NCBI GenBank assembly: GCA_002790095.1
Contig: PFUL01000064.1
Coordinates: 1-64,000 of the forward strand
Reading direction: 5' to 3'
Source: Elusimicrobia bacterium CG_4_9_14_3_um_filter_62_55
GTDB lineage: Bacteria; Elusimicrobiota; Elusimicrobia; UBA1565
Length of the DNA: 64,000 nt
Shown here: positions 5,285 to 6,458 of the stretch, piece by piece
Layout of the letters: each line of letters begins with the position of its first letter
Position numbering within the stretch: the stretch's first letter is position 1
Notes under the pieces: model-generated
The model's database searches: none
Seen by the model: the letters and a program-made list of their open reading frames with translations, nothing else
What the model was told of the DNA's origin: nothing
Translations under genes and position numbers: made by a program

Positions 5285-5311
5285 AAAAAGGCCCCCCGTC
5301 TCCGGGGGGCC
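5285..5311 (-). terminator. Rho-independent terminator of the first repeat-protein gene
   Basis: A 9-bp GC stem (GGCCCCCCG / CGGGGGGCC, loop TCTC) at 5290-5311 followed on the minus strand by five T residues (the A run at 5285-5289). It lies about 30 bp beyond the stop at 5342. On the plus strand there is no T run, so it serves the minus-strand gene. Confidence 0.8.
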
Positions 5312-5341: not shown

Positions 5342-5731
5342 TCAAATCCGTTCGCGGCCAGCAACACAGGTATGCGGCCACTGGCAGGTCTGGAACTGGG
5401 CGACCGGCTCGACCGGGGCCGCTTCGGCCTGGACGCAGGTGTGGGGCCACTGGCAGGTCTGGAACTGGGCGACCGGCTCGACCGGGGCCGCTTCGGCCTG
5501 GACGCAGGTGTGGGGCCACTGACAGGTCTGGAACTGGGCGACCGTTTCGACCGGGGCGGCTTCGGCCTGGACGCAGGTGTGGGGCCACTGACAGGTCTGG
5601 AATTGGGCCACCGGTTCGACGATTTCGACCGCTGCGCACTTGTGAGGCCAGTCGCAGGTTGTAATCTGAGCCTGGGCCGGGGCGGCTTGGAGGTTGAGGC
5701 TGAAAGCAAGGATTTGGAAGATTTGGGTCAT
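5342..5731 (-). CDS. Secreted five-repeat CxWPHxC protein A
   Basis: I do not recognise this family. It encodes 129 residues. A Sec-like leader (MTQIFQILAFSLNLQAAPAQA, cleavage before Gln22) lacks the usual basic N-region. The mature part consists of five Cys-X5-Cys motifs: CDWPHKC at 26-32, then CQWPHTC at 47-53, 70-76, 93-99 and 116-122. Spacers are acidic and Ala/Pro/Val-rich (VQAEAAPVEPVAQF); repeats 2-4 have an exact 23-residue period. The minus-strand reading is supported by the signal peptide, promoter and terminator, and by silent differences between repeats (TGC/TGT for Cys). Other frames stay open only because the unit is 69 bp. Each motif offers two Cys and one His, so metal binding, disulfide cross-linking or a modified-peptide role are all possible. 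Its paralogue is just upstream. Confidence 0.85.
   Translation of the reverse strand: MTQIFQILAFSLNLQAAPAQAQITTCDWPHKCAAVEIVEPVAQFQTCQWPHTCVQAEAAPVETVAQFQTCQWPHTCVQAEAAPVEPVAQFQTCQWPHTCVQAEAAPVEPVAQFQTCQWPHTCVAGRERI
5363..5599 (-). repeat. 69-bp in-frame tandem repeats in repeat protein A
   Basis: Three complete 69-bp units (5531-5599, 5462-5530, 5393-5461) plus a partial one (5363-5392). The two units nearest the 3' end of the gene appear identical base for base, and the third differs at only a few positions, pointing to recent tandem expansion. Confidence 0.9.
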
Positions 5732-5775
5732 TGGGGTAGTCTCTCTTTGGGTACGGCCTAAATTCTGATAGGTCT

Positions 5776-5831
5776 ATAGTACCAGGCCTCCCTAGGCCCC
5801 CCCGATGAGATCGGTCAACAAAAATAGTTGA
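5776..5831 (-). promoter_or_regulatory. Core promoter and inverted repeat of repeat protein A
   Basis: The -10 is TACTAT (5781-5776), 45 nt before the ATG, preceded by GG. No -35 sits at 17 bp. Instead, an inverted repeat TCAAC-N7-GTTGA lies at 5815-5831, roughly -54 from the inferred start site. The paralogous gene has the same elements at the same spacing, which is the main support. Confidence 0.7.
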
Positions 5832-5853
5832 TTCATGGTGTAGTTATCGCTCA

Positions 5854-5867
5854 TTGATCTAGATCAA
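5854..5867. promoter_or_regulatory. Perfect FNR/CRP-type palindrome TTGATCTAGATCAA
   Basis: TTGAT-CTAG-ATCAA matches the textbook FNR-family consensus TTGAT-N4-ATCAA without mismatch. It lies about 91 bp upstream of the inferred transcription start of repeat protein A, a distance used by class I CRP/FNR activators. The regulator is not identified in the window. Confidence 0.7.
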
Positions 5868-5877
5868 CGCCCATGCG

Positions 5878-5905
5878 AAAGCCCCCCGCTCTCGACGGGG
5901 GGCTT
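5878..5905 (-). terminator. Terminator-like hairpin after repeat protein B
   Basis: A 10-bp stem AAGCCCCCCG / CGGGGGGCTT with loop CTCTCGA-type bases, 36 bp beyond the stop at 5941. Only three T residues follow on the minus strand, so it is weaker than the terminator of protein A, but it occupies the equivalent place. Confidence 0.65.
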
Positions 5906-5940
5906 CGTACCGCTCGGGTGATTCCCTCGGAAAAACGCGA

Positions 5941-6321
5941 TTACTTCCCGCCGGGCCCGCACTTCTTGGGCCATTCGCAGGTCGTGAACTGAGCGACGGG
6001 CTCGGCCTTCGGCGCCTCGGCCGCGCAGGTATGGGGCCACTGGCAGGTCTGAAACTGGGCAACCGGCGCGGTCTTCGGGGCCTCGGCGCCGCAGGTGTGG
6101 GGCCACTGGCAGGTCTGGAACTGGGCAACCAGTTCAACCGGGGCCGCTTCGGCCTGGACGCAAGTATGGGGCCACTGGCAGGTCTGGAACCGAGCCGACG
6201 GCTCCTGGATTTCTATTTCGACCGCGCAGGTGTTGGGCATCTGGCAGGTCGTAATTTGGGCGGAAGCCGCAGGGGCTTGCAGGTTCAGGCTGAGAGTCAG
6301 GATCGAGAGCAGTTGGGTCAT
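5941..6321 (-). CDS. Secreted five-repeat CxWPHxC protein B
   Basis: Paralogue of the gene at 5342-5731, 126 residues. Leader MTQLLSILTLSLNLQAPAASA with predicted cleavage before Gln22, again without N-terminal basic residues. The motifs are CQMPNTC (26-32), CQWPHTC (48-54, 71-77, 93-99) and CEWPKKC (115-121). The first and last are diverged in both proteins, while the middle ones are strictly conserved. Spacers are 14-16 residues, acidic and Ala/Pro-rich, with some Lys (GAEAPKTAPVAQF). The ATG at 6321 is chosen because AGGTGA precedes it by 5 nt; the in-frame upstream GTG-side extension of 12 residues would spoil the signal peptide. Family unknown to me. The gene is monocistronic, with its own promoter and hairpin. 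Confidence 0.85.
   Translation of the reverse strand: MTQLLSILTLSLNLQAPAASAQITTCQMPNTCAVEIEIQEPSARFQTCQWPHTCVQAEAAPVELVAQFQTCQWPHTCGAEAPKTAPVAQFQTCQWPHTCAAEAPKAEPVAQFTTCEWPKKCGPGGK
5986..6186 (-). repeat. Imperfect 66-69-bp repeats in repeat protein B
   Basis: Units of 23, 22 and 22 codons (6118-6186, 6052-6117, 5986-6051). They are more diverged than those of protein A. Changes inside the CQWPHTC motif are silent (CAC/CAT His, ACC/ACT Thr), which suggests purifying selection on the motif. Confidence 0.85.
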
Positions 6322-6365: not shown

Positions 6366-6421
6366 ATAGTACCCGGACCGGGCGTAGGTCTCCGATGAGG
6401 CTCGTCAACGCCCGAAGTTGA
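6366..6421 (-). promoter_or_regulatory. Core promoter and inverted repeat of repeat protein B
   Basis: -10 TACTAT (6371-6366), preceded by GG and placed 45 nt before the ATG at 6321. The inverted repeat TCAAC-N7-GTTGA is at 6405-6421. Its arms, spacing and distance to the -10 match the copy upstream of protein A although the intervening sequence differs. Confidence 0.7.
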
Positions 6422-6444: not shown

Positions 6445-6458
6445 TTGACGGGCGTCAA
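6445..6458. promoter_or_regulatory. CRP/FNR-type palindrome TTGAC-N4-GTCAA
   Basis: TTGACGGGCGTCAA at about -92 from the inferred start of repeat protein B. It is the positional equivalent of the TTGATCTAGATCAA site of protein A, with one base changed symmetrically in each half-site. Confidence 0.6.

What the first reader, a model, noticed from the sequence alone, without database searches (positions are those of the whole stretch)
5342..6321. Tandem pair of secreted proteins built from CxWPHxC repeats, family not recognised
Two adjacent genes encode signal-peptide-bearing proteins of 129 and 126 residues. Each has exactly five Cys-X5-Cys motifs (7 of 10 are CQWPHTC) joined by acidic Ala/Pro/Glu/Val spacers. 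Motif changes between units are silent while spacers drift, so the motif is under selection. Two Cys, one His and one Trp per unit suggest soft-metal (Cu, Zn, Hg) binding, disulfide-linked fibres, or a multi-core modified peptide. I know no described family with this unit.
Basis: partly seen in the sequence, partly recalled or inferred. Interest (0 to 1): 0.85.

Follow-up and report, generated by a model that had tools for sequence, protein, structure and literature searches.

The report
Oxygen-sensor-controlled exported cysteine-loop repeat proteins
Two neighbouring genes in an uncultured Elusimicrobiota bacterium belong to an undescribed family of small exported proteins made of repeated C-x-W-P-x-x-C units, which carry binding sites typical of the FNR oxygen sensor and also occur, as single-unit peptides, on phage genomes; their exact job is not yet known.

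Summary
Two genes (5342-5731, 5941-6321, minus strand) encode five-unit CxWPHxC proteins under purifying selection (pooled dN/dS 0.31; motif dN 0.05, spacer dN 0.18). The family matches nothing in Pfam, NCBIfam, PHROGs, PDB or the held papers. Among cells it is confined to Elusimicrobiota (about 38 of 341 genomes), with 1-5 units per protein and up to three tandem genes. In 56 proteins, 362 of 365 cysteines lie in C-x5-C pairs; consensus AQF[KRQ]PCVWPN[TKV]C.

(1) FNR/CRP-type boxes lie upstream (43 of 56 genes; 7 of 382 controls). The only two perfect boxes in the window are these genes'. In 27 of 41 loci the gene neighbours an FNR-like regulator with [4Fe-4S]-type cysteines. (2) Phage contigs encode single-unit versions whose classical signal peptide ends just before the unit, three of four with an FNR-type box.

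Best reading: an FNR-controlled exported string of Cys-pair loops, probably a soft-metal/thiol buffer or a disulfide-closed binding loop; biochemistry must decide. His is not conserved and this genome has no MNIO gene, so a His-metal site or bufferin-type peptide is not supported.

The parts
5342..5731 (-). gene A, 129-aa exported five-unit Cx[W]PxxC repeat protein
5941..6321 (-). gene B, 126-aa paralogue, 72% identical to A
5669..5731 (-). signal-peptide-like N-terminus of A (residues 1-21, ...AAPAQA|Q)
   Evidence: sequence; uncharged n-region; phage homologues have classical signal peptides ending at the same place
6259..6321 (-). signal-peptide-like N-terminus of B (residues 1-21, ...APAASA|Q)
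   Evidence: sequence; same argument as for A
5636..5656 (-). A unit 1 CDWPHKC
5573..5593 (-). A unit 2 CQWPHTC
5504..5524 (-). A unit 3 CQWPHTC
5435..5455 (-). A unit 4 CQWPHTC
5366..5386 (-). A unit 5 CQWPHTC
6226..6246 (-). B unit 1 CQMPNTC
6160..6180 (-). B unit 2 CQWPHTC
6091..6111 (-). B unit 3 CQWPHTC
6025..6045 (-). B unit 4 CQWPHTC
5959..5979 (-). B unit 5 CEWPKKC
5854..5867 (-). distal FNR-type box of A, TTGATCTAGATCAA (perfect palindrome)
   Evidence: one of only two perfect TTGAYNNNNRTCAA sites in 64 kb, 0.07 expected
5805..5818 (-). promoter-proximal degenerate FNR-type box of A, TTGACCGATCTCAT
5776..5781 (-). -10-like element TACTAT of A
   Evidence: conserved spacing to the proximal box in relatives
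6445..6458 (-). distal FNR-type box of B, TTGACGGGCGTCAA on the + strand (perfect palindrome)
6395..6408 (-). promoter-proximal degenerate FNR-type box of B, TTGACGAGCCTCAT
6366..6371 (-). -10-like element TACTAT of B
5290..5311 (-). intrinsic terminator after gene A

Best explanation
Genes A and B are members of an undescribed family of small exported proteins, restricted among cells to Elusimicrobiota. They are strings of 1-5 Cys-pair loops (AQFxPC-x-W-P-[N/H/K/R]-x-C) joined by flexible Ala/Pro/Val linkers. They are transcribed from stand-alone promoters carrying FNR-type boxes and are most likely switched on by an FNR-like [4Fe-4S] regulator when oxygen is low, together with anaerobic energy genes. 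After Sec export and cleavage before Gln, the units act in the periplasm or outside the cell. My committed guess for the final step is that each Cys pair is a thiol site that holds a soft metal such as Cu(I), or acts as a thiol/redox buffer, with unit and gene number setting capacity. Shown by computation: the coding frame, the family, the repeat rules, the promoter boxes, the linkage to the regulator and the phage copies. Inferred: export, the direction of regulation, and the chemistry of the Cys pair (about 40% for metal/thiol buffering taken alone).
For: Homologues in 38 of 57 nearest genomes, with named relatives in Elusimicrobia. 362 of 365 Cys lie in C-x5-C pairs over 181 units, Trp occurs only inside units, and 12 units lose the aromatic residue or the Pro but keep the Cys spacing. 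Purifying selection. FNR-type boxes upstream of 43 of 56 family genes against 7 of 382 control genes, 0.1 in shuffles; the only two perfect boxes in the window are these genes'. In this genome a class II-like promoter pattern hits four places, three of which are the family genes. The FNR-like regulator gene is the same-strand neighbour in 27 of 41 loci and has C-x2-C-x5-C plus one further conserved Cys in 27 of 27; it matches an Fnr model over residues 8-233 and solved FNR chains. Other genes behind the same promoter pattern look like respiratory and anaerobic genes (my reading). Phage single-unit versions have a classical signal peptide and mostly an FNR-type box. Unit number varies with flexible linkers, and AlphaFold2 gives a disordered chain (pLDDT 49).
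Against: No metal-related gene is consistently linked. Conservation extends to V, P, N and AQF, beyond what two metal ligands need. The regulator is also present in genomes that lack the family, so it is a global regulator, not a dedicated partner. About a quarter of family genes, mostly second and third copies in an array, lack a recognisable box. The signal peptide has no positive charge.
Confidence: 0.5

Rival explanations
1. Each unit is a disulfide-closed seven-residue loop with an aromatic-Pro turn that binds a specific partner (receptor, envelope protein, small ligand). Repetition gives avidity, and phages carry a single-loop version to act on the same partner.
For: Twelve positions, not only Cys, are conserved between cells and phages (AQFxPCVWPNxC). 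The Cys spacing is invariant. This genome has VKOR and DsbA-type genes, so it can make disulfides.
Against: No partner is identified, and no receptor gene is consistently linked. VKOR is absent from most relatives that carry the family, although DsbA-type domains are present in nearly all.
Confidence: 0.3
2. The proteins are multi-core precursors: an unlinked enzyme modifies each unit (for example MNIO on Cys, or a radical SAM three-residue cyclophane on W-P-N), and the spacers are cut to free small peptides.
For: Repeated near-identical cores, Ala/Pro linkers, a single-core version in phages, and an aromatic-P-[N/H/K/R] core that recalls W-x-N cyclophane cores (recalled, not tested). Bufferins also carry Sec signals (PMC12452194).
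Against: No modifying enzyme is conserved next to the genes. MNIO is absent from this genome and not associated with the family in relatives. Some units lack the aromatic residue or Pro.
Confidence: 0.12
3. The DNA or RNA itself is the functional element (a regulatory repeat or leader), and the reading frame is incidental.
For: A tandem DNA repeat, and in one family of relatives the -10-like box lies a few bases before the ATG.
Against: Protein-level purifying selection, homology visible in protein across an order, signal-peptide-like N-terminus, and several codon solutions for the same motif.
Confidence: 0.02

Closest known systems
Bufferins / MNIO-modified Sec-exported RiPP precursors (Buf1, Buf2, Buf_EGKCG, CxxxxC; PMC12452194)
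   Same: Small, Sec-exported, Cys-rich, sometimes repeat-built; could buffer metal.
   Different: Unit is C-x5-C with W-P, not the described motifs; no MNIO gene is in the conserved neighbourhood, and there is none in this genome.
FNR regulon genes
   Same: TTGA(C/T)-N4-(A/G)TCAA boxes with class II-like spacing of the proximal box, and a neighbouring FNR-like regulator with C-x2-C-x5-C.
   Different: No described FNR target encodes such a protein that I know of. The regulator's fourth conserved Cys (VVC-x-G) lies elsewhere than Cys122 of E. coli FNR (own knowledge).
Metallothioneins and other Cys-repeat metal sinks
   Same: Repeated Cys pairs with variable unit number.
   Different: Exported; C-x5-C spacing with a conserved W-P between the Cys; no metal-regulator link seen.
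Phage morons (cargo genes with their own promoter)
   Same: In L087 and L089 the single-unit gene lies opposite to its neighbours with its own promoter-like box.
   Different: Cargo under an FNR-type box, homologous to a bacterial multi-unit family, is not something I know to be described.

Membership tests
FNR family (the linked regulator c1, not A or B) | cNMP-binding fold plus Crp-type helix-turn-helix | tested here: met
   PF00027 1.1e-19, PF13545 5.4e-11
FNR family (the linked regulator c1, not A or B) | N-terminal C-x2-C-x5-C and a fourth Cys for a [4Fe-4S] cluster | tested here: met
   27 of 27 have PNCxWCx5C and a fourth conserved Cys; 22 of 27 have exactly four Cys. The cluster itself is not testable here.
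FNR family (the linked regulator c1, not A or B) | score above the NCBIfam Fnr subfamily cut-off | tested here: not met
   63 bits against a cut-off of 228 for PRK11161: FNR-like, not filed as E. coli-type Fnr
FNR-regulated gene (A and B) | FNR-type palindromes upstream at promoter distance | tested here: met
FNR-regulated gene (A and B) | regulator binding and oxygen-dependent transcription | not testable with these tools
   needs a footprint and RNA measurement
Bufferin / MNIO RiPP | MNIO gene in the cluster or genome | tested here: not met
   no PF05114 in this genome; in 16 of 57 relatives, not tracking the family
Bufferin / MNIO RiPP | Sec signal peptide and Cys-rich core | tested here: inconclusive
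   Cys-rich core met; signal-like N-terminus present but without positive charge
Three-residue cyclophane (W-x-N) RiPP | radical SAM maturase next to the precursor | tested here: not met
   no widely conserved neighbour is a radical SAM enzyme (read by eye); an unlinked one was not searched
Sec-exported proteins | positive n-region, hydrophobic stretch and A-x-A cleavage site | tested here: inconclusive
   hydrophobic stretch and xxA|Q site present, but n-region charge is 0 or -1 in all 56; phage members are classical
Any Pfam, NCBIfam, PHROGs or PDB family | significant profile match | tested here: not met
   the one NCBIfam match (FtsK, 15.9 bits against a cut-off of 1566) looks compositional

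The most novel reading that the evidence does not exclude
The proteins are multi-copy precursors of a short exported cyclic peptide (pyroGlu-FxPCVWPNTC) that Elusimicrobiota release under low oxygen as a signal or effector. Phages have captured a single copy, still wired to an FNR-type switch, to send or jam that message.
Probability: 0.12. Interest if true: 0.9.

Novelty: new variant of a known kind. Interest (0 to 1): 0.62.

Why it matters
It adds an undescribed, phylum-restricted family of exported Cys-loop proteins and says when it is probably made (low oxygen, FNR-like control), which makes its function testable. The phage copies with the same type of promoter box suggest that phages exploit a host oxygen switch to time a cargo gene. 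If the unit is a metal sink or a binding loop, one 12-residue peptide is a compact module to study.

Tried and rejected
Known-family searches gave nothing (Pfam, NCBIfam, PHROGs, PDB). A text search for the motif letters in 5.39 million papers returned one irrelevant paper. The MNIO/bufferin idea was tested and not met. A heavy-metal context was considered because an RND efflux gene lies some genes away in six loci; on inspection it is not adjacent and not consistently metal-related. Looser viral pattern scans gave only apparent out-of-frame chance hits, and no relatives of the 37-aa phage peptide were found in the phage or plasmid record collections (a very short query). The AlphaFold2 model is disordered, so no fold search was made. 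A dedicated regulator-target pair was rejected: the regulator also occurs without the family. Phage host: the L087 terminase is slightly closer to an Elusimicrobiota copy (38%) than to any phage record listed (32%), which is not decisive.

Full report
CHECK. Each has five C-x5-C units, 7 of the 10 being CQWPHTC. The array is a 69-bp tandem repeat, so part of the in-gene similarity is recent duplication. Selection was therefore tested between genes and genomes: twelve pairs pooled give dN/dS 0.31, with dN 0.05 in motifs and 0.18 in spacers and signal.

FAMILY. No match in Pfam, NCBIfam, PHROGs or PDB above noise, and no paper contains the motif letters in a relevant sense. Homologues are found in 38 of 57 nearest genomes at E <= 1. 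A phylum-wide profile search hits 41 of 341 genomes at E <= 0.01, three of them weak frames with stops, so about 38 real. The exception, L087, is filed under a Sphingomonadales MAG, but its contig is 65,649 bases with a terminase beside the gene, and IMG/VR holds a 65,646-base contig with the same peptide: a phage, possibly misbinned.

REPEAT RULES. In 56 proteins with 181 units, 362 of 365 Cys are in C-x5-C pairs. Between the Cys: V or Q mostly, then W (151), Y (16), M (4), F (2), then P (178), then N/H/R/K only, then mostly T/K/V/R. Before them: AQF-x-[PT] mostly. Trp is absent outside units. Twelve units have lost W/Y/F or P but keep the Cys spacing. His is therefore not a family feature. 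Unit number runs from one (L165) to five.

EXPORT. The 56 proteins begin with a short hydrophobic stretch, mostly followed by a xxA|Q site, but none has a positive charge in the n-region; 26 of 38 signal-like neighbours do. The decisive comparison is with phage members: MKNTAIVVLLLLAWAALRPAPAAA|QFKPCVWPNTCAQ (L087)...GIPARA|QFQPCVWPNICAQ (L088)...SRAHA|QFRPCVWPYTCG (L089) and ...NARA|NVEPCVWPNHCITK (L099), where a classical-looking signal peptide ends just before the unit. Cleavage sites are read by eye; no signal-peptide predictor was available.

REGULATION. Upstream of the genes stand boxes TTGA(C/T)-N4-(A/G)TCAA and a proximal TTGAC-N5-TCAT about 20-24 bases before a TATACT/TACTAT element. 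Boxes occur in 43 of 56 family genes (80 boxes), 7 of 382 other genes in the same loci, and 0.1 on average in shuffles; spacings recur (49, 37, 14 bases). In the window the strict palindrome occurs twice in 64 kb, 0.07 expected, at 5854-5867 and 6445-6458, about 49 bases upstream of the proximal boxes of A and B. In this genome the promoter pattern hits four places, three of them family genes.

REGULATOR. In 27 of 41 loci a neighbour on the same strand is a CRP/FNR protein of about 235 aa, with a TPR protein in 24. In this genome that arrangement is at G000:C164 (L063), with a two-unit family gene; A and B lie elsewhere, next to an OPT-type transporter, an arrangement shared with a genome of the same genus. 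The regulator has PNCxWCx5C and [V/I]VCxG in 27 of 27, and exactly four Cys in 22, as expected for a [4Fe-4S] FNR; for the L042 copy the best NCBIfam match is Fnr, well below the cut-off. It also exists in genomes without the family, and there the boxes downstream are missing too. Other genes behind the same pattern in a complete-chromosome relative look to me like fumarate reductase/succinate dehydrogenase cytochrome b, 2-oxoacid:ferredoxin oxidoreductase, a c-type cytochrome, CcsA and PEPCK, and in this genome NqrA and GAPDH (read by eye, not profile-tested, and some pattern hits are expected by chance). This fits a global anaerobic regulator.

PHAGE. L087 and L088 carry terminase genes next to the peptide gene, and L089 carries RusA and HNH genes. 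In the fetched 10-kb L087 and 8.4-kb L088 stretches the only strict FNR-type box is the one directly upstream of the peptide gene; L089 has a near-match there and L099 has none. Host assignment is open.

MECHANISM. Shown: coding, family, rules, boxes, linkage, phage copies. Inferred: low-oxygen expression, export, and the chemistry. I favour a soft-metal or thiol buffer (unit-number variation, flexible linkers, disordered model, exported Cys pairs). A disulfide-closed recognition loop is close behind, because conservation covers twelve residues and this genome can probably make disulfides. A modified multi-core peptide is less likely.

NOVELTY. The family is undescribed in everything searched. 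Its ingredients (Sec export, FNR control, Cys-pair repeats, phage cargo) are known kinds, hence 'new variant'.

Noticed in passing
L087 4929-5042; L100: Contig filed under a Sphingomonadales MAG appears to be the same phage as IMG/VR contig 3300001798_000009 (65,649 and 65,646 bases): possible misbinning.
   Followed up: partly
L088 4868-7549: Phage terminase large subunit interrupted by an intein.
   Followed up: no
L035, L042-L045, L053: In first-copy genes of these relatives the -10-like box (TATACTGT/TACACTGT) ends only a few bases before the ATG, suggesting leaderless or nearly leaderless transcripts.
   Followed up: no
L032, L033, L035, L038, L042, L044, L053, L056: A roughly 290-340 aa exported-looking protein lies between the TPR gene and the FNR-like regulator; the L032 copy has no Pfam match.
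   Followed up: no
L132, L137, L149: Further exported-looking Ala/Pro/Val-rich proteins of unknown function lie behind the same FNR-type promoter pattern.
   Followed up: no
L099 1304-1433: A 210-kb viral contig encodes a single-unit peptide (signal peptide + ANVEPCVWPNHCITK) without an FNR-type box but with a ribosome-binding site.
   Followed up: partly
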